DNA of 64,000 nucleotides, taken from positions 1 through 64,000 of the forward strand of contig NZ_JASAMB010000030.1 in assembly GCF_029948125.1 (NCBI RefSeq). Direction: 5' to 3'. The DNA is from Catellatospora sp. KI3. GTDB taxonomy: Bacteria; Actinomycetota; Actinomycetes; Mycobacteriales; Micromonosporaceae. Shown here one piece after another: positions 1 to 63,396 of the stretch (within the stretch, counting starts at the first letter, position 1; each line of letters begins with the position of its first letter). Both the position numbers and the translations under genes were made by a program. Below the pieces are notes generated by a model, which saw only the letters and a program-made list of their open reading frames with translations, did not search any database and was not told the origin of the DNA.

Positions 1-17
1 AAGATCACCTTCCTTGT

Positions 18-34
18 GATAGGCCAGCGTCTAT
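18..34. repeat. Palindromic repeat B, right arm at the window edge
   Basis: GATAGGCCAGCGTCTAT matches the right arm of the two complete family-B elements at 20062-20138 and 63055-63119. The left arm would lie before base 1. ATCAC at 4-8 can pair with GTGAT at 16-20 as the inner stem. The match between copies is seen directly; that this copy is complete is inferred. Confidence 0.6.
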
Positions 35-234
35 GGGAAGCGGGCGCGGTGCGGACCGCGGCGGTCCATGATCGGCGGGTGGGGTCATTCGGCGGGGCGG
101 AGGCGGCGGTTTCCGCCGCGGGAGGTGATGTTGCGGTGGTGCGGGGCGGGCGAGAGGCCACGCGCTGCCGAACTCGGCGCAACGGGTCGCAAAACCTGAC
201 GGAACCTGTCCAGGTATGCCGCCAGCATGGACCC

Positions 235-4079: not shown

Positions 4080-4133
4080 AAGGAGGGGACCCTTCTTATC
4101 GCTTTCCGATATGGAAGGGCCCCCTCTTAACGC
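4080..4133 (+). repeat. Palindromic repeat A, copy 1
   Basis: An imperfect palindrome with GGAGGGGACCCTTCT and GAAGGGCCCCCTC arms around the conserved centre CTTATCGCTTTCCG. It begins immediately after the TPR gene stop. It probably ends transcription of that gene, but the non-palindromic centre is conserved between copies, which a simple terminator would not need. Confidence 0.85.
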
Positions 4134-12512: not shown

Positions 12513-12565
12513 AAAGGAAGGGTCCCTTCTTATCGCGATCCGATGTGGAAGGGGCCCTTCCTGAC
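12513..12565 (+). repeat. Palindromic repeat A, copy 2
   Basis: AAAGGAAGGGTCCCTTCT and GAAGGGGCCCTTCCTGAC surround the conserved centre CTTATCGCGATCCGATGT. It begins 6 bases after the SDR stop and separates it from the convergent operon that ends at 12579. Confidence 0.87.
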
Positions 12566-16428: not shown

Positions 16429-17489
16429 ACGACGTGGGTGCGACGCAGTCCGCCGGAGCCGCGGTGGAGGAGAAGCCGATCCACATTCTCTGGATCAACG
16501 CCGGGCTGAGCTGCGACGGCGATTCGGTGTCGCTGACCGCGGCCACCCAGCCCAGTATCGAGGAGATCGCGCTGGGCGGCCTGCCCGGCCTGCCGAAGAT
16601 CGCGGTGCACTGGCCGCTGATCGACTTCGAGTGCGGCCCGGAGCAGGGCGCCGACACGTTCATCGAATGGTTCCACAGGGCCGACCGGGGCGAGCTGGAG
16701 CCGTTCGTGCTGATCATCGAGGGGTCGATCCCGAACGAGGCGATCAAGGAAGAGGGCTACTGGGCCGCGTTCGGCAACAACCCGGCCACCGGGCAGCCGA
16801 TGACCACCAGCGAATGGCTGGACCGGCTCGCGCCCAAGGCGCTGGCCGTGGTCGCGACGGGGACGTGCGCCACGTACGGCGGGATCCATGCGATGGAGGG
16901 CAATCCGACCGGGGCCATGGGCGTGCCGGACTACCTGGGCTGGGACTGGCGCTCCAAGGCCGACATCCCGATCGTGTGCGTGCCCGGGTGCCCGGTCCAG
17001 CCGGACAACATGGCCGAGACGCTGACCTACCTGCTCTACCAGGCCGCGGGGCAGGCGCCGATGATCCCGCTGGACGACAAGCTGCGCCCGCAGTGGCTGT
17101 TCGGGATGACCGTGCACGAGGGCTGCGACCGGGGCGGCTTCTACGAGCAGGGGCAGTTCGCCAAGGCGTACGGCACGCCCGAGTGCATCGTGAAGATCGG
17201 CTGCTGGGGCCCGGTGGTCAAGTGCAACGTGCCCAAGCGCGGCTGGATCAACGGCGTCGGCGGCTGCCCGAACGTGGGCGGCATCTGCATCGCCTGCACC
17301 ATGCCCGGCTTCCCGGACAAGTTCATGCCGTTCATGGACGAGCCGCCCGGCGCCCACGTGTCGGCCAACGGCAGCGGCATGTACGGCGCGATGATCCGCC
17401 GCCTGCGCAACATCACCGCCAAGACCGTGGACAAGGAGCCCAAGTGGCGCCACCGCGGCCCCGAACTGACCACCGGCTACCGCCGCTGA
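16425..17489 (+). CDS. hhyS: [NiFe]-hydrogenase small subunit, group 1h
   Basis: The 354-residue iron-sulfur subunit that carries electrons from the NiFe site. The proximal-cluster motif normally reads CxxC; here it reads C30-D-G-D33, the Cys-to-Asp exchange known for group 1h/5 actinobacterial enzymes. Other cluster ligands are seen in CVPGCPVQP, the HEGCDRGGFYE to CWGPVVKCN region and GGCPNVGGICIACTMPGFP. There is no Tat signal, consistent with a cytoplasmic-side enzyme. The GTG overlaps the SIS gene stop. The enzyme class oxidises trace H2 to support persistence. Confidence 0.95.
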   Translation: MNDVGATQSAGAAVEEKPIHILWINAGLSCDGDSVSLTAATQPSIEEIALGGLPGLPKIAVHWPLIDFECGPEQGADTFIEWFHRADRGELEPFVLIIEGSIPNEAIKEEGYWAAFGNNPATGQPMTTSEWLDRLAPKALAVVATGTCATYGGIHAMEGNPTGAMGVPDYLGWDWRSKADIPIVCVPGCPVQPDNMAETLTYLLYQAAGQAPMIPLDDKLRPQWLFGMTVHEGCDRGGFYEQGQFAKAYGTPECIVKIGCWGPVVKCNVPKRGWINGVGGCPNVGGICIACTMPGFPDKFMPFMDEPPGAHVSANGSGMYGAMIRRLRNITAKTVDKEPKWRHRGPELTTGYRR

Positions 17490-17525: not shown

Positions 17526-19298
17526 ATGACCATGCAGCAGGAGCGTGAGGGTCTGGTCGAGATGTCGTGGGATCCGATCACCCGGATCGTCGGCAGCCTC
17601 GGCATCTACACGAAGATCGACTGGAAGCAGAAGCAGGTCGTCGAGTGCTACAGCACCTCGTCGGTCTTCCGCGGCTACAGCATCTTCATGAAGGGCAAGG
17701 ACCCGCGCGACGCCCACTTCATCACCAGCCGCATCTGCGGCATCTGCGGCGACAACCACGCGACCTGCTCGGTCTACGCCCAGAACCAGGCGTACGGCGT
17801 GCAGCCGCCGCACCTGGGGGAGTGGATCGTCAACCTCGGCGAGGCCGCCGAGTACATGTTCGACCACAACATCTTCCAGGAGAACCTGGTCGGGGTGGAC
17901 TACTGCGAGCGCATGGTCCGCGAGACCAATCCGGGGGTATGGGAGAAGGCCAAGAACACCCCGGCGCCCGGCGCGGCGCAGCACGGGTACAAGACGATCG
18001 CCGAGATCATGACCTCGCTCAACCCGCTGGAGGGCGAGTTCTACCGCGAGGCGCTGCAGGTCAGCCGGACCACCCGGGAGATGTTCTGCCTGATGGAGGG
18101 GCGCCACGTGCACCCGTCCACGCTGTACCCGGGCGGCGTCGGCACGGTCGCCACGGTGCAGCTGTTCACCGACTACCTGTCCCGGCTGATGCGCTACGTC
18201 GAGTTCATGAAGCGGGTCGTGCCGATGCACGACGACCTGTTCGACTTCTTCTACGAGGCGCTGCCCGGCTACGAGGAGGTCGGCCGGCGGCGGGTGCTGC
18301 TCGGCTGCTGGGGCGCGCTCAACGACCCGGACCACTGCGACTTCTCGTACGAGCGGATGTCGGACTGGGGCCGCAAGATGTTCGTCACGCCGGGCATCGT
18401 GGTCGACGGCAAGCTCGTCACCAACGACCTGGTGAAGATCAACCTCGGCATCCGCATCCTGCTCGGCAGCTCCTACTACGACGACTGGCAGGGCGAGCAG
18501 GTCTTCGTGCACCGCGACCCGCTGGGCAACCCGGTCGACGTGCGCCACCCGTGGAACCAGCACACCCTGCCCAAGCCGCAGAAGCGCGACTTCGACGGGG
18601 CGTACTCCTGGGTCATGTCGCCGCGCTGGTTCGACGGCGCCGACCACCTGGCCCTGGACACCGGCGGCGGCCCGATCGCCCGGCTGTGGTCCACCGCCCT
18701 GTCCGGCCTGGTCGACATCGGCTACGTCAGGGCCACCGGCCACAGCGTGATCATCAACCTGCCCAAGACGCTGACCAAGCCCGAGGTCAGCTTCGAGTGG
18801 AAGATCCCGCGGTGGAGCAACGCCCTGGAGCGCAACCGGGCCCGCACCTACTTCCAGGCGTACGCCGCCGCCGTCGCCCTGCACGCCTGCGAGAAGGCGC
18901 TGGGCGAGGTCCGGGCCGGGCGCACCCAGACCTGGGAGCCGTTCACCGTGCCCAAGGACGTCAACAGCGTCGGGTTCACCGAGGCGGTGCGCGGCGTGCT
19001 GTCGCACCACATGGTCATCCGGGACGGCAAGATCGCCAACTACCACCCGTACCCGCCGACGCCGTGGAACGGCAGCGTGCGCGACCGGTACGGCACGCCC
19101 GGCCCGTACGAGGACGCGGTGCAGAACACCCCGATCTTCGAGGAGAACACGCAGGAGAACTTCAAGGGCATCGACATCATGCGCGCCGTACGCAGCTTCG
19201 ACCCGTGCCTGCCGTGCGGGGTGCACATGTACACCGGCGACGGGAACGTGCTGCGCAAGCTGCACACCCCGCACGCGTTCGCGTCCGGTGCCGCATGA
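17526..19298 (+). CDS. hhyL: [NiFe]-hydrogenase large subunit, group 1h
   Basis: The 590-residue catalytic subunit. Nickel ligands are C71 and C74 in SRICGICGDNHATC and C561 and C564 in DPCLPCGVH. A 23-residue tail follows His567, the expected cleavage point for the maturation protease encoded at 22692. The sequence type (FDPCLPCGVHMYTGDG, RICGICGDNHATCSVYAQN) is that of high-affinity actinobacterial H2 oxidisers. It starts 36 bases after hhyS, and its stop overlaps the next ATG. Together with hhyS it forms the core of the enzyme. Confidence 0.97.
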   Translation: MTMQQEREGLVEMSWDPITRIVGSLGIYTKIDWKQKQVVECYSTSSVFRGYSIFMKGKDPRDAHFITSRICGICGDNHATCSVYAQNQAYGVQPPHLGEWIVNLGEAAEYMFDHNIFQENLVGVDYCERMVRETNPGVWEKAKNTPAPGAAQHGYKTIAEIMTSLNPLEGEFYREALQVSRTTREMFCLMEGRHVHPSTLYPGGVGTVATVQLFTDYLSRLMRYVEFMKRVVPMHDDLFDFFYEALPGYEEVGRRRVLLGCWGALNDPDHCDFSYERMSDWGRKMFVTPGIVVDGKLVTNDLVKINLGIRILLGSSYYDDWQGEQVFVHRDPLGNPVDVRHPWNQHTLPKPQKRDFDGAYSWVMSPRWFDGADHLALDTGGGPIARLWSTALSGLVDIGYVRATGHSVIINLPKTLTKPEVSFEWKIPRWSNALERNRARTYFQAYAAAVALHACEKALGEVRAGRTQTWEPFTVPKDVNSVGFTEAVRGVLSHHMVIRDGKIANYHPYPPTPWNGSVRDRYGTPGPYEDAVQNTPIFEENTQENFKGIDIMRAVRSFDPCLPCGVHMYTGDGNVLRKLHTPHAFASGAA

Positions 19299-19849: not shown

Positions 19850-20637
19850 CCCTGCGCCAGTACCTGCGCCCGGCGCCCGGGCCGGACCCGGCTGCCACGG
19901 CGGCCACGGCCGGCCCGGCCGCCGAGCGGTGCGAGCTGTGCGCGGCGCCGCTGCCCGCCCGCCACGACCACCTGGTCGACCGGCACACCCGCTCCCTGCC
20001 CTGCGCCTGCCGCCCCTGCTGGCTCCTCTTCCCCGCCGCGCCACCCGGCGCCGCGCCCAGCCTTAAATCGACGCTGGCCTATCTGGAAGACGGTTTCGGC
20101 GAGTCGCGTCCTCTGGATAGGCCAGCGTCGATGCTAAGTGCGAGCGGTGAAGCCGCCCCGCCCCCCGCCCCCGCACAGTCGCCCGTACCCGACCGGCTCG
20201 CCCGTTACGTGGCGATTCCCGCCACCGTCACCGGGCTGCCGGGGTTCCCGCTGACCGAGCGGGACTGGGCGGCGCTCGACCTGCCCGTGCGGCTCGCGTT
20301 CGTCTACCGCGACAGCTCGCTGCGCCACCCCGTGGCCCTGTACCCGAGCCCGGCCGGCGCCGCCGAGTCCCCGCTGTCGCCCGAGGCGCTGGCAGAGCTG
20401 CTCAGCCGGCACCCGTTGACCGCCGCCCTGCCCGAGGACGTCGCGGCGCTGCTGCTGCACCGGGGCGACCACGGGCCGGAGTGCTTCGTTGTGCCCATCG
20501 ACGCCTGCTACCGGCTGGTCGGGCTGGTGCGTACGCACTGGCGCGGCTTCGACGGCGGCGACCAGGCGCGCGCCGCCATCGCCGGGTTCCTCGACGAGGT
20601 GCGCGCGGACGCGAGGACGGAGACCGCAGTTGCTTGA
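19846..20637 (+). CDS. DUF5947 protein with an in-frame palindromic insertion
   Basis: A 263-residue protein typical of actinobacterial hydrogenase clusters. Residues 25-55 are a zinc-binding module (RCELCAAPLPARHDHLVD, then LPCACRPCWLLF). A C-terminal domain follows (PVRLAFVYRDSS, ALLLHRGDHGPECFVVPIDA). Residues 73-98 are encoded entirely by a family-B palindrome that is intergenic elsewhere in the window. The insertion keeps the frame and sits in the linker between the domains. The stop overlaps the next gene's TTG start. Function is unknown, perhaps electron transfer or assembly. Confidence 0.83.
   Translation: MTLRQYLRPAPGPDPAATAATAGPAAERCELCAAPLPARHDHLVDRHTRSLPCACRPCWLLFPAAPPGAAPSLKSTLAYLEDGFGESRPLDRPASMLSASGEAAPPPAPAQSPVPDRLARYVAIPATVTGLPGFPLTERDWAALDLPVRLAFVYRDSSLRHPVALYPSPAGAAESPLSPEALAELLSRHPLTAALPEDVAALLLHRGDHGPECFVVPIDACYRLVGLVRTHWRGFDGGDQARAAIAGFLDEVRADARTETAVA
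20062..20138. repeat. Palindromic repeat B, copy inside the DUF5947 gene
   Basis: ATCGACGCTGGCCTATC (20067-20083) and GATAGGCCAGCGTCGAT (20116-20132) are perfect 17-bp inverted arms. Outer CTTA/TAAG extends the pairing to 20062-20138. The same arms occur in intergenic DNA at 63055-63119 and at the left window edge. In this gene the element reads as LKSTLAYLEDGFGESRPLDR followed by PASMLS. Confidence 0.9.
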
Positions 20638-21286
20638 GCTCGACTTCACCTGCCTGGACGTGCAGGCGCAGCGCTGGGCGGCCGCCCCGACGCTGCGCAT
20701 CCGGCTGGGCGTGACCGGCCCGCCGGACGTACGCGTGCACGCCGGGGTGCTGACCTGCCAGCTGCGCATCGACCCGCGCGCCCGCGACTACACCGACGCC
20801 GAGGCGCAGAAGCTGGCGTGCGTGTTCGGCGAGCCGTCGCGCTGGGCGGCGAGCATGCAGCAGCTGCAGTTCGCCACGGTCACCGCGATGCTGCCGGGCT
20901 TCACCGACCGCACCGAGATGGAGCTGCTGGTGCCCTGCTCGTACGACCTGGAGGTCGGGCTGGGCAAGTTCTTCCACGCCCTGTCCGGCGGGGATGTGCC
21001 GCTGACGCTGCTGTTCAGCGGCACGGTGTTCGTGGCGACCGAGGCGGGCGTGCAGGTGGCGCGGGTGCCGTGGGACCGGGAGGCGGGCTACCGGATGCCC
21101 GCCGCGATCTGGCGCGACCTGATGGACCTCTACTTCCCGGACTCGGCCTGGATCCGGCTGCGCCGCGACACCACCGACGCGCTGCTGCGCTACCAGGCCC
21201 GGCACGCGGTGCCCAGCGCCGACGTGGCACTGGCCGGGCTGCTGGCGGCCCAGCAGGAGGAGGCGGCGTGTCCGGCTCCGCGCTGA
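20630..21286 (+). CDS. DUF6084 family hydrogenase-cluster protein
   Basis: A 218-residue protein (LELDFTCLDVQAQRWAAAPT, ELLVPCSYDLEVGLGKFFHA, VPLTLLFSGTVF, DSAWIRLRRDTTDALLRY) of the DUF6084 type that accompanies group 1h hydrogenases. There are no membrane helices or obvious cofactor motifs. The only usable start is TTG at 20630, overlapping the previous stop by 8 bases; GGACGGAGA precedes it. The next gene begins 19 bases before its end. Function unknown; likely an assembly or accessory factor. Confidence 0.8.
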   Translation: MLELDFTCLDVQAQRWAAAPTLRIRLGVTGPPDVRVHAGVLTCQLRIDPRARDYTDAEAQKLACVFGEPSRWAASMQQLQFATVTAMLPGFTDRTEMELLVPCSYDLEVGLGKFFHALSGGDVPLTLLFSGTVFVATEAGVQVARVPWDREAGYRMPAAIWRDLMDLYFPDSAWIRLRRDTTDALLRYQARHAVPSADVALAGLLAAQQEEAACPAPR

Positions 21287-22695
21287 GCGACCCGTTCGAG
21301 CAGGCCCGCGCCGTCGCCGACGCGGTGCTGTACGAGGGCTACCTGCTCTACCCGTACCGCGCCGACGCGGCCAAGAACCAGCTGCGCTGGCAGTTCGGCG
21401 TGCTGGTGCCCCCGTCGTACGCCTCCGACGCCCACGGCGAGTACGCCACCTGCCAGACCCAGCTGCTGGCCGAGCCCGGCCCCGACGCGGTGCTGCGCTG
21501 GCGCCTGCGCTTCCTGCACGCGGTCACCCGCACCGTCGAGGCGGCCACGCCCGACGGCTGGTCGCCCCGCGACTCCGCCGAGCACGACGGCGTGCTGCAC
21601 CTGACCTTCGACGAGACGGTCGAGCAGACCGTCGACGTCGAGGCCGCGCTGTGGCCGCTCGCCGACGCCCCCGACGACCTCACCCCGTTCGCCGTCCCCG
21701 GCGGCGAACAGATCGAGCAGCTCAGCCCCGAGCTGCGGCTGCGCCGGGTACGCCGTCCGCTGCAGGGGGCGCTGCGCCTGCGCGTGGAGCGGCTGCCCGG
21801 CCCCCACCGCCAGACCCTCCGCCTCACCTGCACCGTCGAAAACCGCACCGACGAAAGGAAGGGACCCTTCTTATCGCTATCCGATGTAGAAGGGTCCCTT
21901 CCTAACGCGGCCGCCGCGCAGGCGGGGGCTGGGGGCGGGCGCTCCGGCCGGCCGGAGGCCCTGCGGTCGTCGCTGATCGCCGCGCACAGCGTGTTCGCGT
22001 TGAGCGCGGGCGGGTTCGTGTCGGCGCTCGACCCGCCGGAGTGGGCGAAGGCGGCGGTGGGCGCGTGCCGCAACGTGCGGACCTGGCCGGTGCTGCTGGG
22101 CGAGCCGGGGCGTACCGACGCGGTCCTGTCCGCCCCGGTCATCCTGTACGACCACCCGGTGGTCGCGCCGGAGAGCCCCGGCGACTCGTTCGATTCGCTG
22201 GAGATCGACGAGCTGCTGGTGCTGCGTACGCTGACGCTCACCGACGCGGAGAAGCGGCAGGTCCGGGCCACCGACGCGCGCGCGGACGCGCTGCTGGGCC
22301 GGGCCGAGGCGCTGCCGCCGGAGCTGTTCGAGCGCCTGCACGGCGCGATCCGGCAGCTGCGCCCGGCTGCCGTCGCCGTCGACCCTTTCACGACGACGGC
22401 ACCCTGGTGGGACCCGGGCGCGGACGCGGGCGTGGATCCCGCCGCCGACACCGTGGTGATCGACGGGGTGGAGATCGGCGCGGGACGCAAGGTGCGGCTG
22501 CGGCCGGGCGGGCGGCGCAGCGACGCGCAGGACATGTTCCTGGTCGACCGGGTCGCCACCGTGCACGCCGTACTGCTCGATGTGGACGGCTCGACGCACC
22601 TGGCCGTGACGCTCGACGACGATCCCGCCGCCGACCTGCAGGTCGCGCAGGGCCGGTTCCGCTACTTCGCGCCGCAGGAGGTGGTGCCGGCATGA
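21268..22695 (+). CDS. Unknown hydrogenase-operon protein carrying a repeat A insertion
   Basis: A 475-residue cytosolic protein with no recognised domain. The N-terminal 190 residues (VADAVLYEGYLLYPYRADAA, KNQLRWQFGVLVPP) look beta-rich; the C-terminal part includes RSSLIAAHSVFALSAGGFVS, SFDSLEIDELLVLRTLTLTD and QDMFLVDRVATVHAVL. Residues 196-213 (ERKGPFLSLSDVEGSLPN) are encoded by a family-A palindrome, in frame. This puts a rare TTA codon at residue 202. GTG at 21268 has AGGAGGAGG upstream. It is fixed in hydrogenase operons of this type by position; its role is unknown. Confidence 0.8.
   Translation: MSGSALSDPFEQARAVADAVLYEGYLLYPYRADAAKNQLRWQFGVLVPPSYASDAHGEYATCQTQLLAEPGPDAVLRWRLRFLHAVTRTVEAATPDGWSPRDSAEHDGVLHLTFDETVEQTVDVEAALWPLADAPDDLTPFAVPGGEQIEQLSPELRLRRVRRPLQGALRLRVERLPGPHRQTLRLTCTVENRTDERKGPFLSLSDVEGSLPNAAAAQAGAGGGRSGRPEALRSSLIAAHSVFALSAGGFVSALDPPEWAKAAVGACRNVRTWPVLLGEPGRTDAVLSAPVILYDHPVVAPESPGDSFDSLEIDELLVLRTLTLTDAEKRQVRATDARADALLGRAEALPPELFERLHGAIRQLRPAAVAVDPFTTTAPWWDPGADAGVDPAADTVVIDGVEIGAGRKVRLRPGGRRSDAQDMFLVDRVATVHAVLLDVDGSTHLAVTLDDDPAADLQVAQGRFRYFAPQEVVPA
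21855..21905 (+). repeat. Palindromic repeat A, copy 3, inside a gene
   Basis: AAGGAAGGGACCCTTCT (21855-21871) and AGAAGGGTCCCTTCCT (21888-21903) flank the conserved centre TATCGCTATCCGATGT. It is the most symmetric copy in the window and is translated as part of the 475-residue hydrogenase-operon protein. The frame stays open through it. Confidence 0.92.
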
Positions 22696-23222
22696 CGGTG
22701 CTGGTCGCGGGCCTGGGCAACATCTTCCTCGGCGACGACGGGTTCGGCGTGGAGGTCGCGGCGCGCCTGGCGGCGCAGCCGCATCCGGAGTGGGTACGGG
22801 TGGCCGACTACGGCATCCGCGGCGTCCATCTCGCGTACGACCTGATGGAGGGCTACGACGCCACCGTGCTCATCGACACCGACCAGCGCGGCGACGTCCC
22901 CGGCACGGTACGCCTGGTGGAGATCACCGCCGAGCACCGCGCCGCCGACCGGGCGGCCGGGGACGGGGTGCTGGTCGACCCGCACGGCATGCAGCCCAAC
23001 CGGGTGCTGCACCTGCTCGACAGCTGCGGCGGCAGCCCCGGCCGGGTGCTGCTGGTCGGCTGCGAGCCGCTGGTGCTGGAGGAGGGCATCGGGCTGAGCC
23101 GCCCGGTGCTCGCGGCCGTCGACGTCGCGGTGGTGCTGGTGCGCCAGCTGTGGGACGCCGGACCGCAGGCCCTGCTGGAGCAGAGCGTTTCGTCAGGTCC
23201 ATCAAGGAGAGGGGCACCGTGA
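22692..23222 (+). CDS. Hydrogenase maturation protease
   Basis: A 176-residue nickel-dependent endopeptidase of the HyaD/HycI family. It shows the conserved LVAGLGNIFLGDDGFGVEV with the metal-binding acidic residue, DYGIRGVHLAYDLMEGYDATVLIDT, and HGMQPNRVL. It should cut the 23-residue tail from HhyL once the NiFe(CN)2CO centre is in place. The ATG overlaps the previous stop. The C-terminal 20 residues run into the leader of the next small gene. Confidence 0.93.
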   Translation: MTVLVAGLGNIFLGDDGFGVEVAARLAAQPHPEWVRVADYGIRGVHLAYDLMEGYDATVLIDTDQRGDVPGTVRLVEITAEHRAADRAAGDGVLVDPHGMQPNRVLHLLDSCGGSPGRVLLVGCEPLVLEEGIGLSRPVLAAVDVAVVLVRQLWDAGPQALLEQSVSSGPSRRGAP

Positions 23223-23972: not shown

Positions 23973-25100
23973 ATGCGATTCGTGGACGAGTTCCGCAACG
24001 CTGAGCAGGCCAGGGCACTGGCGGCCCGGATCGCGGCCCGGTGCGAGCCGGGGCGGCACTACAAGTTCATGGAGGTGTGCGGCGGGCACACGCACACCAT
24101 CTACCAGCACGGGCTGGAGGACTACCTGCCCGAGTCGGTCGAGCTGGTGCACGGGCCGGGCTGCCCCGTCTGCGTGATCCCGATGGGCCGCGTCGACGAC
24201 GCCATCGCCATCGCCAGGCGGCCCGAGGTGATCCTCACCTCGTTCGGGGACATGATGCGGGTGCCCGGCGGCGACGGGTCGTTCCTGGACGCGAAGGCGG
24301 CCGGGGCCGACATCCGCATGGTCTACTCGCCGCTGGACGCGCTGAAGCTGGCCCGCGCCCACCCCGACCGCGAGGTCGTGTTCATGGCGATCGGGTTCGA
24401 GACCACCGCGCCGAGCACCGCCGTCACGGTGCGCCGGGCCGCCGCCGAAGGGCTGGCCAACTTCTCGGTCTTCTGCAACCACGTGACGATCATTCCGGCG
24501 ATCAAGGCCATCCTGGACTCGCCCGACCAGCGCCTGGACGGCTTCCTCGGCCCCGGGCACGTCTCGACCGTGATCGGCTGCGAGCCGTACCGCTTCATCG
24601 CCGAGCGGTACGGCAAGCCGCTGGTCGTGGCCGGGTTCGAGCCGCTGGACATCCTGCACTCGATCGACATGCTGCTGGCCCAGCTGGAGCAGGGCCGCTG
24701 CGAGATCGAGAACCAGTACAGCCGGGTCGTGCCCTGGGACGGCAACCTGACCGCCCTCAAGACCCTGGCCGACGTGCTGGAACTGCGCCCGTTCTTCGAG
24801 TGGCGAGGCCTGGGCTTCATCGCCCACTCCGCGCTCAAGCTGACCGAGCGCTATGCCGCCTTCGACGCCGAGCGGCGCTTCGCCGTGCCGGGCGTGCGCG
24901 TGGCCGACCCGAAGTCGTGCCAGTGCGGCGAAGTGCTCAAGGGCGTGCTCAAGCCGTACGAGTGCAAGGTCTTCGGCACCGCCTGCACGCCCGAGACGCC
25001 GATCGGCACCTGCATGGTCTCGCCCGAGGGCGCCTGCGCGGCGTACTACAACTTCGGCCGGTTCCACCGGCAGCGCCTGCTGGAGGTGACCGCCCGATGA
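23973..25100 (+). CDS. hypD: Hydrogenase formation protein HypD
   Basis: A 375-residue iron-sulfur scaffold for assembly of Fe(CN)2CO. Family motifs are complete: FMEVCGGHTHTIYQHGLEDY, HGPGCPVCVIPMG, FETTAPSTA, and the C-terminal cluster cysteines in DPKSCQCGEVLKG, YECKVFGTACTPETPIGTC and SPEGACAAYY. The length is normal. GGGGAGCCGACG precedes the start. Its end overlaps hypE as ATGA. Confidence 0.96.
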   Translation: MRFVDEFRNAEQARALAARIAARCEPGRHYKFMEVCGGHTHTIYQHGLEDYLPESVELVHGPGCPVCVIPMGRVDDAIAIARRPEVILTSFGDMMRVPGGDGSFLDAKAAGADIRMVYSPLDALKLARAHPDREVVFMAIGFETTAPSTAVTVRRAAAEGLANFSVFCNHVTIIPAIKAILDSPDQRLDGFLGPGHVSTVIGCEPYRFIAERYGKPLVVAGFEPLDILHSIDMLLAQLEQGRCEIENQYSRVVPWDGNLTALKTLADVLELRPFFEWRGLGFIAHSALKLTERYAAFDAERRFAVPGVRVADPKSCQCGEVLKGVLKPYECKVFGTACTPETPIGTCMVSPEGACAAYYNFGRFHRQRLLEVTAR

Positions 25101-26173
25101 CCGCCGAGCTGACCGAGGTCCTCGACCGCATCGACCGGACCCGCCGCGCCCGTCCCCGGGTCCGCGAGCAGCGGCTCACCATGGCCCACGGCGCGGGCGG
25201 CAAGGCCACGCAGACGCTGGTCGAGGCGGTGTTCCTGGAGGCGTTCGACAACCCGGAGCTGAACGCGCTCGACGACGCGGCGGCGCTGACCGCCGGTGGC
25301 GCCCGGCTGGCGTTCACCACCGACTCGTACGTGGTCAAGCCGCTGTTCTTCCCCGGCGGCGACATCGGCGACCTCGCCGTCAACGGCACCGTCAACGATC
25401 TGGCCGTGGCCGGTGCCCGCCCGCGCTTCCTGTCGGCCGGGTTCATCCTCGAAGAGGGCCTGCCGGTCGCCGACCTGACCCGGATCGTGGCCTCCATGGG
25501 GGCCGCCGCCCGCGCCGCCGGGGTCAGCATCGTCGCCGGGGACACCAAGGTCGTCCCGCGCGGCCTGGCCGACGGCTGCTACATCACCACGGCCGGGGTG
25601 GGCGTACGGGAGCACCCCCGCGACTTCGGCGTGCACCTGGCCCGCCCCGGCGACCTGGTCCTGGTCTCCGGCCCGATCGGCGACCACGGCATGACGGTGC
25701 TGGTCGCCCGGGGCGACCTGGACCTGGAGGCCGACCTGCGCTCGGACACCGCCGCGCTGACCGGGCTGGTCGACGACCTGCTCGCGGCCGCGGGCGAGGG
25801 CGTACGCGGGATGCGCGACGCGACCCGGGGCGGGGTGGCGACCATCCTCAACGAGATCGCCCGCGCGGCCGGGGTGACCGTGGTGGTCGACGAGTCGGCC
25901 GTGCCGGTGCGCGCGGGCGTACGCGGCGCCGCCGAACTGCTCGGCATCGACCCGCTGTACGTCGCCTGCGAGGGCCGCCTGGTCGCGGTCGTGGCCCCCG
26001 AGCACGCCGCCGCCGCCCTGGCCGCCCTGCACGCGCACCCGCTCGGCGACCAGGCCGCCGTCATCGGCCGCATCGACCCCGACCCGGCCGAACTGGTCCT
26101 GCTGCGCACCCGCTTCGGCGGCACCCGCATCGTCGACCTGCTGGTAGGCGACCCCCTGCCCCGCATCTGCTGA
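25097..26173 (+). CDS. hypE: Hydrogenase expression/formation protein HypE
   Basis: A 358-residue HypE that dehydrates a carbamoyl group on its C-terminal Cys to a thiocyanate, the CN donor. The C-terminus reads PLPRIC, the conserved PRIC. The N-terminal GAGGK motif (MAHGAGGKATQTLVE) and NGTVNDLAVAGA mark the AIR-synthase-like ATP fold. It is the last gene of the operon. The carbamoyl donor HypF is encoded 3.4 kb away on the other strand. Confidence 0.96.
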   Translation: MTAELTEVLDRIDRTRRARPRVREQRLTMAHGAGGKATQTLVEAVFLEAFDNPELNALDDAAALTAGGARLAFTTDSYVVKPLFFPGGDIGDLAVNGTVNDLAVAGARPRFLSAGFILEEGLPVADLTRIVASMGAAARAAGVSIVAGDTKVVPRGLADGCYITTAGVGVREHPRDFGVHLARPGDLVLVSGPIGDHGMTVLVARGDLDLEADLRSDTAALTGLVDDLLAAAGEGVRGMRDATRGGVATILNEIARAAGVTVVVDESAVPVRAGVRGAAELLGIDPLYVACEGRLVAVVAPEHAAAALAALHAHPLGDQAAVIGRIDPDPAELVLLRTRFGGTRIVDLLVGDPLPRIC

Positions 26174-40004: not shown

Positions 40005-43000
40005 ATGAGATTCAGCACGTTCCGCCGCCGTGTCGCGCTCGCCGCGACAGGGCTGATGGTCGTGGCGATGGGAGCCGCGATAGCGACCCCCGCCCACGCC
40101 GCCGTCGCCTGCCAGGTGACGTACACGAAGGCCTGGGACAACGGCTCCGGCTTCGGCGCCAACATCACCGTCGCCAACACCGGTGACGCGTGGACCAGCT
40201 GGACGCTGACCTGGGCCTGGCCCGGCAGCCAGACCGGCATCCAGGGCTGGTCGGCCAACTACAGCCAGTCCGGCCAGAACGTCACCGCCACCAGCCTGTC
40301 CTACAACGGCGCGGTCGCCAACGGCGGCTCGGTCGGCATCGGGTTCAACGCCTCCTACAGCGGCACGAACACCGACCCGACCAGCTTCAAGGTCAACGGC
40401 ACCACCTGCGGCGGCACCCAGCCGGCGGTGAACCTGGTGGTCTCGCCGACGTCGGTGTCGGTGCCCGAGGGCGGCACGGCCACCTACGCCGTACGCCTGT
40501 CGGCCCAGCCGTCGGCCAGCGTCACCGTCAGCACGACCGCCGGCACCGGCGACGCCAACCTGACCGTGTCGTCCGGCGCCAGCCTGACCTTCACGACCAG
40601 CAACTGGAACACCAACCAGACGGTCACCCTGGCCGCGTCCGAGGACTCCGACACCACCAACGGCACCCGGCCGTTCACGGTGGCGGCATCCGGCCTCACC
40701 CCGGTGACGGTCAACGCGACCGAGGCTGACAACGACCCGGCCGGCACCCAGTCGCTGGTGGTCTCGCCGACCGCGGTGACCGTGCCCGAGGGCGGCACCG
40801 CCACCTTCGGCGTACGCCTCAACATCGCGCCGACCGGCAACGTCACCGTCACCACGACGGCCGGCACCGGCGACGCGAACCTGACCGCGTCGGCGGGCAC
40901 CAGCCTGACGTTCACGCCCAGCAACTGGAGCACGGCCCAGAACGTGACCCTGGCGGCGTCCGAGGACAGCGACACCACCAACGGCACCAGGCCGTTCACG
41001 GTCGCCTCCAGCGGCCTCACCTCGGTGACGGTCAACGCCACCGAGGCCGACAACGACACCACGACGACCCAGTCGCTGGTGGTCAACCCCACGTCGGTGA
41101 ACGTGCCCGAGGGCTCGACCGCCGTGGTCGGCGTACGGCTGGCCGTCCAGCCCGCCGCCAGCGTCACCGTCACCACGACGGCGGGCAGCGGCGACACCAA
41201 CCTGACCGTGTCCTCCGGCTCCAGCCTGACGTTCACGACCGGCAACTGGAACACCGTGCAGAACGTGACCCTGGCCGCGGCGCAGGACACCGACAGCACC
41301 AACGGCACCCGGCCGTTCACCGTCGCTTCCAGCGGGCTCACCTCGGTGACCGTCACCGCGACCGAGGTGGACGACGAGAACACGGCCAACGCCTACATCA
41401 CCGAGTTCACCACCCAGTACAACAAGCTGAAGGACCCGGCCAACGGGTACTTCTCGCCCGAGGGCATCCCGTACCACACGATCGAGACGCTGCTCGTCGA
41501 GGCGCCCGACCACGGCCACGAGACCACGTCCGAGGCGTTCAGCTTCTGGATCTGGATGGAGGCCCAGTACGGCCGGGTGACCGGCAACTGGACCCCGTTC
41601 AACAACGCCTGGAACATCACCGAGCAGTACATCATCCCGTCGGCGGCGGCCCAGCCCGGTCAGAGCACCTACAACCCGAGCGACCCGGCCGACTACGCCC
41701 CGGAGGCGCTGCAGCCCAACGGCTACCCGGTGCCGCTGAGCACCAGCGTGGTCGCCGGCCAGGACCCGCTGGCCAACGAGCTGCAGACCACGTACGGCAA
41801 CCGCAACATCTACGGCATGCACTGGCTGCTCGACGTGGACGACGTGTACAAGTACGGCACCGGCCGTACCGGTGCCGAGTGCGGCGACAGCACGCAGCGG
41901 GTGACCTACATCAACACGTTCCAGCGTGGTCCGCAGGAGTCCACCTGGGAGACGGTCGCGCACCCGTCCTGTGACACGGGCCGGTTCGCGAACTTCCCGT
42001 CGCTGTTCATCCAGGGCTCGACCACCGGGCAGTGGCGCTACACCAACGCCCCGGACGCCGACGCCCGCGCCGTCGAGGCCGCGTACTGGGCGCTGCAGTG
42101 GGCCACGGCCCAGGGCAACCAGTCGCAGATCTCGGCGACCGTGGCCAAGGCCGCGAAGATGGGCGACTTCCTGCGGTACGCGATGTACGACAAGTACTTC
42201 AAGACCCCGGGCTGCACCTCCACCTCCTGCACCCCCGGCAGTGGCAAGAGCAGCAGCAACTACCTGCTGTCGTGGTACTACGCGTGGGGCGGCGACATCG
42301 CCGGGGCGTGGTCGTGGCGCATCGGCTCCAGCCACAACCACCAGGGCTACCAGAACCCGCTCGCCGCGTACGTCCTCGGCTCGTCCGGCCCGACCGCGCT
42401 GCGCCCGCAGTCGCCCACGGCCGCCGCGGACTGGGACACCAGCCTCACCCGCCAGCTCGACTTCTACCTCTGGCTCCAGTCGGCCGAGGGCGCCATCGCC
42501 GGTGGCGCGACGAACAGCTGGAACGGCAACTACTCGGCCCCGCCGTCCGGCACGCCCACCTTCTACGGCATGGCGTACGACGTGAAGCCGGTCTACCACG
42601 ACCCGCCGTCGAACCAGTGGTTCGGCTTCCAGGCCTGGTCGCTGCACCGCGTGGCGGAGTACTACTACGTCACCGGCAACGCCAAGGCCAAGCAGATCCT
42701 GGACAAGTGGGTCGCCTGGGCGGTCGCCAACACCACCCTGGGCTCGGGCTCGAACTTCTCGATCCCCAGCGACATGACCTGGTCGGGTCAGCCGTCCGGC
42801 AACTACAGCGGCGGCGGCACCCCGGCGGCCAACCCGGGCCTGCACGTCTCGGTCACCAAGTCCGGCAACGACGTCGGCGTCGCGGCGGCCTACGCCCGTA
42901 CGCTGACCTACTACGCGGCCAAGGAGAACGGCTCGACCCTGGGCAACTCCGCCAAGGCGACCGCGAAGGGCCTGCTGGACCGCATGATCCTGCTGAAGGC

Positions 43001-43325: not shown

Positions 43326-43380
43326 GTAAGGAAGGGGGCCCTTCTTATCGCTTTCCGTAGCAGAAGGGCCCCTTCCCAAC
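43326..43380 (+). repeat. Palindromic repeat A, copy 4
   Basis: TAAGGAAGGGGGCCCTTCT and GAAGGGCCCCTTCCCAAC flank the conserved CTTATCGCTTTCCG centre. It begins 6 bases after the GH48 stop and 27 bases before the convergent serine-hydrolase gene end. Confidence 0.87.
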
Positions 43381-48755: not shown

Positions 48756-49472
48756 GTGATCCTGGTCGGCACCTCCGGCTGGCAGTACCGCGACTGGCGC
48801 GGCCCGTTCTACCCGCCCGGCCTGCCGCAGCGCCAATGGCTGGCCCACTACGCCGCCGAGTTCCCGACCGTCGAGGTCAACAGCGTCTTCTACCGGCTGC
48901 CGCAGCGCGGCGTCTTCACCGCCTGGCGCGAGCAGACGCCGTCCGGGTTCACCGTGGCGGTCAAGGCCAGCCGCTACCTGACCCACATCCGGCGGCTGCG
49001 CGACCCGGCCGAGCCGGTGCGCCGGTTCCTCGACGCGGTCGCGGGCCTGGGCGACCGGCTCGGCCCGGTGCTGCTGCAGCTGCCGCCGACGATGCGCGCC
49101 GACCCGGCCGCGCTGGCCGATACGCTGCGCCACTTTCCCGAGGGGCGGCGGGTCGCGGTCGAGCCCCGGCATCCGTCCTGGTGGAACGATGCGGTCCGGG
49201 CGGTGCTGGAAGGCCACGGCGCCGCGCTGTGCTGGGCCGACCGGCTGGGGCGGCCGCAGACCCCGCTGTGGCGTACCGCCGACTTCGGCTACCTGCGCCT
49301 GCACGAGGGCCGCGCCCAGCCCCGCCCCCGCTACGGCCGCACCGCCCTGCGCACCTGGCAAGGCCGCCTCCAGGACACTTTCGGCGACCACCCTGTGTAC
49401 GTCTACTTCAACAACGACCCCCACGCCGCCGCGATCGCCGATGCCCGCGCCTTCACCTCCCTCGCGGGTTAA
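48756..49472 (+). CDS. DUF72 family protein
   Basis: A 238-residue TIM-barrel protein of the DUF72/YecE family. It shows LVGTSGWQYRDWRGPFYPPG, VEVNSVFYRLP, VEPRHPSWW, GYLRLHEG and the C-terminal VYVYFNNDPHAAAIADARAF. The biochemical function is not known. The GTG start at 48756 is divergent from the GNAT gene. Its TAA stop (49470-49472) lies within the end of a family-A palindrome, so the repeat supplies the stop codon. Confidence 0.88.
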   Translation: MILVGTSGWQYRDWRGPFYPPGLPQRQWLAHYAAEFPTVEVNSVFYRLPQRGVFTAWREQTPSGFTVAVKASRYLTHIRRLRDPAEPVRRFLDAVAGLGDRLGPVLLQLPPTMRADPAALADTLRHFPEGRRVAVEPRHPSWWNDAVRAVLEGHGAALCWADRLGRPQTPLWRTADFGYLRLHEGRAQPRPRYGRTALRTWQGRLQDTFGDHPVYVYFNNDPHAAAIADARAFTSLAG

Positions 49473-49523
49473 CAAGGGGCCCTTCCTCTACGTAAAGCGA
49501 TAAGAAGGGGCCCTTCCTTTCTC
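49469..49523 (-). repeat. Palindromic repeat A, copy 5, reverse orientation
   Basis: On the minus strand it reads AAAGGAAGGGCCCCTTCT, then TATCGCTTTACG, then GGAAGGGCCCCTTGTTAAC. It is inverted relative to the other four copies and overlaps the DUF72 stop codon. Confidence 0.88.
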
Positions 49524-54386: not shown

Positions 54387-54697
54387 CGGGTCTCCTCAGT
54401 GATGAGTATCGAATCGATAATCGTCGCAGTCGTGCCGCGCGCGCAAGGCCGCGCGTCCCCTGCCTGCGGATAGGCCGCGCCGTGCCTGGGCTGGACCGCT
54501 GCAGTTTCGGGGAGACTGCGGGAATCACCGCCGGCTTTCGTGCAGTTTCGAAGAAACTGCACGAACGGGTCGCCCGGCGCCCGGGGGCGAGCGCACGTGG
54601 AGTGACGGGCAGTTGACATCAGGTATCAGGCGCCGCGCGCCGGGTCTCTTGTCTTCGTCGGAAACACGCGGGAACCGCCAAGCCGAAGGAGGCAGCC
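54387..54697. other. Intergenic region with repeat C and divergent starts
   Basis: No gene is supported. It contains the TATCGAATCGATA palindrome (54407-54419), the repeat C pair (54501-54560) and TTGACA at 54613. It serves as the divergent control region of the DUF6289-like and zinc-ribbon genes. Confidence 0.55.
54501..54560. repeat. Palindromic repeat C, copy 2
   Basis: Two palindromic units: GCAGTTTCGGGGAGACTGC (54501-54519) and GCAGTTTCGAAGAAACTGC (54542-54560), 22 bases apart. Spacing and unit sequence match the pairs at 34832-34892 and 63173-63232. Confidence 0.85.
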
Positions 54698-58229: not shown

Positions 58230-58337
58230 GGCACACCCGTGTGGGAGAGTCCGCGCGCGAGCGCGGCGCCGAAGGGGCAATTCCTCCCCGGAACCTCTCA
58301 GGCACCCGAACCGTACGGGCATGGCGACTCTGGAACT
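58230..58337 (+). ncRNA. Glycine riboswitch (single gcvT-type aptamer)
   Basis: Conserved aptamer blocks occur in order: GGGAGAGTCC (58243), GGCGCCGAAGGGGCAA (58265), CCTCTCAGGCACCCG (58304) and GGCGACTCTGGA (58323). A second aptamer was not found. It lies about 85 bases before gcvP and should switch the gene on when glycine is abundant. Confidence 0.92.
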
Positions 58338-63054: not shown

Positions 63055-63119
63055 ATCGACGCTGGCCTATTACGTCGACTTCGATCTTGATTGAGTCGAT
63101 GTAATAGGCCAGCGTCTAT
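63055..63119. repeat. Palindromic repeat B, complete intergenic copy
   Basis: Arms of 26 bp at 63055-63080 and 63094-63119 pair with two mismatches (ATCGACGCTGGCCTATTAC with its complement). The outer 17 bases match the copy inside the DUF5947 gene. The inner stem and loop differ between copies. Confidence 0.9.
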
Positions 63120-63172
63120 GACGGGCGGGCCGGGTCGCCCGCCCGGCGGGCCGCTCCGCCCTCGGCTTTCCG

Positions 63173-63232
63173 GCAGTTTCGGGGAAACTGCGCGAATGGG
63201 GGCGCCTTTTCCGGCAGTTTCCCCGAAACTGC
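63173..63232. repeat. Palindromic repeat C, copy 3
   Basis: GCAGTTTCGGGGAAACTGC (63173-63191) and GCAGTTTCCCCGAAACTGC (63214-63232) are exact reverse complements, 22 bases apart. It is the cleanest copy of the family in the window. Confidence 0.9.
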
Positions 63233-63396
63233 ACGGATCAGCGCCAGGCCCTGCTGACCGCGAGTCGCGAGCGCACCCCTACACCCAGGCGCGTGATCGG
63301 TGGCCGCGGTCCGAATGTGCCGGTAGAGCCGGCCGTCTGACCGCAAACGCTGATCATGTGGCTGAGCGTAGGGGTGTGTGCTGGGGCGGGAACGGC

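What the first reader, a model, noticed from the sequence alone, without database searches (positions are those of the whole stretch)
21855..21905. Palindromic repeat A inserted in frame into the neighbouring 475-residue gene, adding a TTA codon
The element reads as KGPFLSLSDVEGSLP within the protein, while four other copies are intergenic. It brings a TTA leucine codon at 21871-21873. TTA is very rare in such GC-rich genomes, and in Streptomyces it ties translation to the bldA tRNA. The repeat could therefore place a hydrogenase accessory protein under developmental tRNA control.
Basis: partly seen in the sequence, partly recalled or inferred. Interest (0 to 1): 0.85.

Follow-up and report, generated by a model that had tools for sequence, protein, structure and literature searches.

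The report
Coding repeat hairpin with rare codon
A short DNA hairpin scattered through the genomes of Catellatospora soil bacteria, mostly just after genes, also sits inside several unrelated genes where it is translated; its copies differ between species in step with each other, and the rare TTA codon it carries looks like a passenger, not a developmental switch.

Summary
A 52-bp palindromic repeat (21855-21906) is translated in frame inside a 475-residue hydrogenase-cluster protein and supplies its only TTA codon. TTA is very rare here (21 in 501,051 called codons) and a tRNA-Leu(UAA) gene exists.

The bldA reading is weakly supported. TTA stands at this site in 3 of 10 genus orthologues, window included. 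The same repeat puts TTA into a class I ribonucleotide reductase gene. TTA codons show no bias to gene starts.

What is there is a REP-like family without a detected RAYT transposase. In 1.78 Mb, 47 of 61 intergenic copies lie within 20 nt of a stop codon (random 7.6%). Eight copies found wholly inside genes all use the one usually open frame of their orientation. The relatives' variant (GGGCACC) is replaced by GGGNCCC in this genome (162 matches against 0), and also inside three unrelated protein genes, changing the encoded residues. In-place rewriting is the simplest account; recurrent insertion at the same sites is the main rival. Function and mobility mechanism are inferred, not shown.

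The parts
21855..21906 (+). 52-bp palindromic repeat, in frame inside the 475-residue gene (residues 196-214)
   Evidence: nhmmer E 6.6e-17
21857..21870 (+). left arm GGAAGGGACCCTTC, itself nearly palindromic; pairs with the right arm
   Evidence: folds
21889..21902 (+). right arm GAAGGGTCCCTTCC
   Evidence: folds
21871..21873 (+). TTA leucine codon (codon 202), part of the conserved arm TTCTTATCG of the repeat
21268..22695 (+). 475-residue gene of unnamed family in a [NiFe]-hydrogenase cluster; host of the in-frame copy
   Evidence: ORF; no Pfam family above its cut-off and no NCBIfam family; 74 relatives in other genera
4080..4131 (+). intergenic copy, 3 nt after the end of a called gene; also filled in C. 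tritici, empty in G118
12514..12565 (+). copy between convergent genes; copies of other arm types at the corresponding place in C. tritici and G118
43328..43380 (+). copy between convergent genes
49468..49519 (-). copy at the end of a + strand gene
16464..17489 (+). hydrogenase small subunit gene of the cluster (NCBIfam matches below the curated cut-offs)
17526..19298 (+). hydrogenase large subunit gene of the cluster (NCBIfam matches below the curated cut-offs)
22692..23222 (+). hydrogenase maturation protease gene, directly downstream of the host gene
   Evidence: TIGR00072 above cut-off
25097..26173 (+). hypE of the same cluster
   Evidence: TIGR02124 above cut-off

Best explanation
The feature is one member of a high-copy, REP-like palindromic repeat family of Micromonosporaceae. 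Shown: the repeat is 52 bp with two arms; most intergenic copies stand a few bases after a stop codon, more often in the gene's own orientation; a minority lie in frame inside unrelated genes; and the sequence variant differs between genomes in step across intergenic and coding copies. Inferred: the hairpin acts at the RNA level at gene ends (termination, 3'-end protection or ribosome pausing), and inside a gene it is tolerated because moving ribosomes keep it open and because it falls in linkers. Inferred: the coding copies are rewritten in place by a gene-conversion-like process, so the inserted peptide follows the genome's repeat variant (KGTF in relatives, KGPF here). The TTA codon is a passenger of the conserved arm. 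It may slow translation where tRNA-Leu(UAA) is scarce, but nothing indicates a conserved developmental switch.
For: Copies: 65 in 1.78 Mb. 47 of 61 intergenic copies lie within 20 nt of a stop codon, random expectation 7.6%; among these 47 the orientation is that of the gene in 36 and opposite in 11; 31 of 61 between convergent genes against 170 of 940 gaps. Eight copies found wholly inside genes are all in one phase: 5 sense (window gene, CysS_C-like, LuxR-type, class I ribonucleotide reductase, LPG-synthase-like) and 3 antisense (UreF, xanthine dehydrogenase D, AtuA). Variant switch: GGGNCCC 162 matches in this genome, 78 in C. tritici, 0 in nine others; GGGCACC 0 here, 61 in C. tritici, 7-243 in the nine. 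At three orthologous coding sites the same switch is seen: element position 11 is C in 6 of 6 copies of this genome and C. tritici, and A (15) or G (1) in the 16 others. Mean differences over 52 positions: same locus across groups 11.4 (n=32), different loci within a group 7.4 (n=93), different loci across groups 10.8 (n=64). At the CysS_C-like site 10 of 10 species with the whole gene are filled, and G118, a near relative, keeps a decayed copy with the older left arm. C. tritici holds copies that mix old or intermediate and new arms, also on the one contig of the hydrogenase cluster.
Against: The ribonucleotide reductase site is empty in G118, G051 and C. bangladeshensis; on the tree that fits two independent insertions as well as one gain with losses. 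Placement of G118 beside this genome and C. tritici as a pair is 0.99 in the joint tree but 0.27 and 0.85 in single-gene trees. The joint switch rests on one branch, since only two genomes carry the new variant. The C. tritici assembly (6% contamination) may be mixed. Pattern GGGNCCC was searched with ATCG only, GGGCACC with AACG or ATCG. Arm pairing is not strict: positions 10 and 41 are complementary in 22 of 59 copies against 12.2 by shuffling, but C-C mismatches are the commonest class (17 of 59). No RNA-level function was tested, and no mobility enzyme was found.
Confidence: 0.7

Rival explanations
1. The TTA codon puts the hydrogenase accessory protein under bldA-type developmental control.
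For: TTA is very rare (21 in 501,051 codons); a tRNA-Leu(UAA) gene exists; it is the only TTA of the gene. In the ribonucleotide reductase copies the TTA is replaced by CCA or ACA in 6 of 6 species outside this genome and C. tritici, although the arms persist, which would fit a cost of TTA; the number of independent events was not tested.
Against: TTA at this site in 3 of 10 genus orthologues; it comes with the repeat arm (56 of 59 copies); TTA in a class I ribonucleotide reductase gene; no start bias of TTA; 5 of 74 orthologues in other genera have a TTA, at varied codons; passages of PMC4255298 doubt a role of bldA outside Streptomycineae.
Confidence: 0.07
2. The coding sites are hot spots where the locally active variant inserts again and again, so orthologous sites carry different variants without conversion.
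For: Ribonucleotide reductase site empty in G118, G051 and C. bangladeshensis, filled with the new variant in two species and the old one in six; window site 4080 filled in C. tritici and empty in G118; hydrogenase site without element in G118.
Against: The CysS_C-like site is filled in 10 of 10 with no empty allele; the insertion point, orientation and frame agree at the three sites; copies mixing arm types occur; no clean target duplication was seen at the two filled/empty comparisons examined.
Confidence: 0.25
3. The in-frame hairpin is itself a regulator of the hydrogenase operon, an attenuator or mRNA-processing site between structural and maturation genes, and the peptide is incidental.
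For: Very stable RNA hairpin, -37.1 kcal/mol, z -9.2; intergenic copies sit at gene ends.
Against: The hairpin is lost or broken in G118, C. paridis, C. coxensis, C. sichuanensis and G051; there is no sign that hydrogenase operons are favoured, since other coding copies lie in unrelated genes.
Confidence: 0.12

Closest known systems
REP / BIME / REPIN elements (GTAG- and CGTC-tagged repeats, PMC3733652, abstract and passages read)
   Same: Short palindrome, more than 100 copies, mostly between convergent or co-oriented genes and downstream of coding regions, close inverted pairs, a minority inside genes in frame, and some providing stop codons to neighbours.
   Different: No Y1 transposase (RAYT) found in this genome; 52-bp rigid two-arm unit; no membership shown of the GTAG or CGTC superfamilies; the paper's main text has no hit for Micromonospor, Salinispora, Actinobacteria, Frankia or Streptomyces.
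Rickettsia palindromic elements (passages on them in PMC10969869, and PMC3733652)
   Same: Palindromic repeat translated in frame inside unrelated genes, one conserved peptide per element.
   Different: Here most copies are extragenic at gene ends (61 of 65 in the sample); the unit is 52 bp against about 150 bp; it carries TTA in the sense frame; sequence relation was not tested.
bldA / TTA-codon control in Streptomyces (passages of PMC4255298)
   Same: Rare TTA codon in a GC-rich actinomycete with a tRNA-Leu(UAA) gene.
   Different: TTA brought by a repeat, not conserved at this site, without bias to gene starts, also in a ribonucleotide reductase gene.
MITEs (passages of PMC10969869)
   Same: Small, non-coding-by-origin, dispersed, sometimes fused in frame with genes.
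   Different: Ends only loosely inverted (AAGGAAGGG against GTTAAGAAGGG); no target duplication recognised at the two filled/empty comparisons examined.

Membership tests
REP/RAYT (REPIN) system | Short palindrome in more than about 100 copies, mainly extragenic | tested here: met
   65 copies in 1.78 of 8.2 Mb, 61 not wholly inside a called gene; 150 peptide-level matches genome-wide
REP/RAYT (REPIN) system | Associated Y1 tyrosine transposase (RAYT) in the genome | tested here: not met
   PF01797: 0 matches in this genome; the control search rings in 5 of 14 named genomes, E. coli among them
REP/RAYT (REPIN) system | GTAG or CGTC tetranucleotide at the foot of the palindrome | tested here: inconclusive
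   GTAG often occurs just before the right arm, as in CCGTAGTAGAAGGG or CGATGTAGAAGGG, by eye in the copies; not counted or tested against chance
REP/RAYT (REPIN) system | Neighbouring copies in inverted pairs | tested here: met
   6 of 6 neighbouring pairs under 300 bp apart are inverted
Rickettsia palindromic elements | In-frame insertion in unrelated protein genes with one conserved peptide | tested here: met
   8 genes, one peptide per orientation
Rickettsia palindromic elements | Sequence homology to RPE families | not tested
   no RPE sequence was compared
bldA regulon | tRNA-Leu(UAA) present and TTA rare | tested here: met
bldA regulon | TTA conserved among orthologues | tested here: not met
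   3 of 10 genus orthologues, window included
bldA regulon | Expression depends on the UAA-reading tRNA | not testable with these tools
   needs a mutant
MITE | Terminal inverted repeats and target-site duplication | tested here: inconclusive
   two filled/empty comparisons (window site 4080 against G118; C. tritici 22057 against the window) differ by the element plus extra flank, no clean duplication

The most novel reading that the evidence does not exclude
A dispersed hairpin family is kept uniform genome-wide by in-place rewriting that does not spare coding sequence: when the family switched variant in the lineage of this genome and C. tritici, copies inside at least three unrelated proteins switched with it, so stretches of unrelated proteins evolve in concert with non-coding DNA; in sense orientation each intact copy also delivers a TTA codon, the rarest leucine codon of the genome.
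Probability: 0.4. Interest if true: 0.8.

Novelty: new variant of a known kind. Interest (0 to 1): 0.5.

Why it matters
REP-like repeats and their in-frame copies are known, but here the coding copies of a repeat without a detected RAYT seem to be homogenised together with the non-coding ones. That would be a route by which non-coding DNA dictates residues in unrelated proteins, ribonucleotide reductase included, and a natural assay for how such repeats are rewritten. It also warns against reading a TTA codon in an actinomycete gene as regulation before checking whether a repeat brought it.

Tried and rejected
bldA control of the hydrogenase protein: kept only as a weak rival (reasons above). 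A RAYT-driven system: no PF01797 match. A parent mobile element: I read the genes between neighbouring copies less than 3.5 kb apart in the sample by eye; they look like ordinary genes and I recognised no transposase, but no family search was run on them. Spread by plasmids or phages: no match to the 52 bp in either collection. A known RNA family: in the window Rfam matches only a glycine riboswitch elsewhere. Literature: searches gave listings only, apart from the four papers whose passages I read; none of the listings or passages I saw describes this repeat, and the string search for GAAGGGGCCCTTC returned 0 papers. The effect of E. coli REPs close to a stop codon on translation is recalled, not found. 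A structure model to see whether the insert is a surface loop could not be made.

Limits of my counts: the gene caller is my own; in-gene copies outside the 1.78-Mb sample came from regions picked because they matched the peptide, so 8 is not a rate; two further copies (C1:208647, C1:623601) form the 3' ends of called genes in another frame; decayed copies were left out of the distance comparison (22 copies used); copy counts by pattern count matches, and one element can match twice. The C. coxensis remnant at the hydrogenase site is only about 8 nt.

Full report
Setting. The window lies in an 8.2-Mb, 96-contig genome. The closest named relative by the host protein is Catellatospora tritici, 88% identity. 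The host gene (21268-22695) stands in a [NiFe]-hydrogenase cluster with small and large subunit genes (NCBIfam matches below cut-off), a maturation protease and hypE (both above cut-off). The 475-residue protein has no NCBIfam family and no Pfam family above cut-off.

Observation. The repeat at 21855-21906 is in frame, reads ERKGPFLSLSDVEGSLPNA and brings TTA at 21871-21873, the only TTA of the gene. It folds into a long hairpin with z-scores near -9 as DNA and as RNA. The genome has 354 matches to a 19-base pattern of it at up to 2 mismatches, against 1 for the reversed control.

The family. In an unselected 1.78-Mb sample (C1 1-800 kb, C12 200-400 kb, C34 1-400 kb, C67, window) there are 65 copies: 4 wholly inside called genes and 61 not. 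Of the 61, 47 lie within 20 nt of a stop codon; random placement in the same gaps gives 7.6%, and 9.9% in the first, smaller sample. Of these 47, 36 have the orientation of the gene. Convergent gaps hold 31 of 61 copies against 170 of 940 gaps; divergent gaps hold 4. Copies are uneven: 2 in 400 kb of C34 and 20 in 316 kb of C67. The consensus is rigid: 41 of 43 copies in the first sample are full-length and of 52 bp, with nearly invariant arms and a variable centre. One sense frame is free of stops in 40 of 41 copies and one antisense frame in 32 of 41. The eight copies I found wholly inside genes are in those frames. Their hosts are the window protein, a CysS_C-domain protein, a LuxR-type regulator, a class I ribonucleotide reductase alpha subunit, an LPG-synthase-like protein (sense), and UreF, xanthine dehydrogenase subunit D and AtuA (antisense). 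Four of the five sense copies carry TTA; the LPG-synthase-like one has CCA.

TTA. 21 TTA codons occur in 20 of 1498 called genes; 2 of the 21 come from the repeat. They are spread along genes, median relative position 0.56. A tRNA-Leu(UAA) gene lies at C12:347106.

Distribution. In 121 Micromonosporaceae genomes, 30 have the pattern at up to 1 mismatch, among them 8 of 8 Catellatospora, the window's genome included; copy number is patchy within other genera. Plasmid and phage collections have no match.

Orthologous coding sites. Hydrogenase site: intact in this genome, C. tritici, C. vulcania, C. bangladeshensis and G121; altered or decayed in C. sichuanensis, G051, C. paridis and C. coxensis; without the element in G118. 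Outside the genus 0 of 74 have it. TTA: this genome, C. tritici, C. bangladeshensis. CysS_C-like site: filled in 10 of 10 species with the whole gene, decayed in G118, TTA in 8 of 10; G121 was left out because its gene is split in that assembly. Ribonucleotide reductase site: filled in 8 of 11, empty in G118, G051 and C. bangladeshensis, TTA in 2 of 8; 28 of 28 fetched relatives from other genera lack it at the tail (no match better than E 2.8 anywhere in those loci).

Concerted change. GGGNCCC-type matches: 162 here, 78 in C. tritici, 0 in nine others; GGGCACC-type: 0 here, 61 in C. tritici, 7-243 in the nine (the patterns were not fully symmetric). One likely relict of the older type remains here, at C1:623601. 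The 11 copies seen in fetched stretches of G051, G118 and G121 that keep a left arm carry GGGCACC in it, and the one truncated G051 copy keeps GGTGCCC. At the three coding sites element position 11 is C in 6 of 6 copies of this genome and C. tritici, and A or G in 16 of 16 others. The peptide changes accordingly from KGTF to KGPF. Copies differ more from their orthologues across the two groups (11.4 of 52, n=32) than from other loci in their own group (7.4, n=93). The tree of three genes from nine species groups G118 with this genome and C. tritici at 1.00, and that group with G051 and C. bangladeshensis. At the CysS_C-like site the copy is present throughout, so the switch is most simply in place. 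At the ribonucleotide reductase site two insertions are as simple. C. tritici contains copies with one old or intermediate arm and one new arm, as partial rewriting would give. In G051, 6 of 7 full copies have arms GGGCACC and GGTGCCC, which keep the long hairpin paired.

Mechanism. Placement right after stop codons with mostly one orientation suggests an RNA hairpin at gene ends; in-frame copies would be kept open by ribosomes. This is inference. The enzyme that moves or rewrites the repeat is unknown; a RAYT was not found.

Judgement.

Noticed in passing
window 58232-58323 (+): Glycine riboswitch aptamer (RF00504, 62.3 bits against a gathering score of 32).
   Followed up: no
window 54501-54563 and 63173-63235: A second palindromic repeat type (GCAGTTTCGGGGAAACTGC and similar), 76% identical copies.
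   Followed up: no
window 11-51, 20109-20149, 63096-63136: Three copies of a 41-bp repeat with TAGGCCAGCGTC.
   Followed up: no
window 40508-41449: Three tandem 300-bp units spaced 321 bp within a large called gene.
   Followed up: no
L012 and L245 (C. sichuanensis and G051), hydrogenase site: A further stretch (GTCGGCTC.CGTCAGCGAGACGAGCAGCA) interrupts the element in frame in these two, with remains in C. paridis and C. coxensis, although their closest relatives G121, C. vulcania and C. bangladeshensis have the plain element.
   Followed up: partly
G123 (C. tritici) contigs C6 and C12, C1 and C44: Repeat copies with identical spacing on C6 and C12 and a twice-present ribonucleotide reductase match on C1 and C44 suggest duplicated or mixed assembly; its copy counts may be inflated.
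   Followed up: no
ribonucleotide reductase orthologues L303-L308: The TTA position of the repeat is CCA or ACA in 6 of 6 filled species other than this genome and C. tritici, possibly selection against TTA in a housekeeping gene.
   Followed up: no
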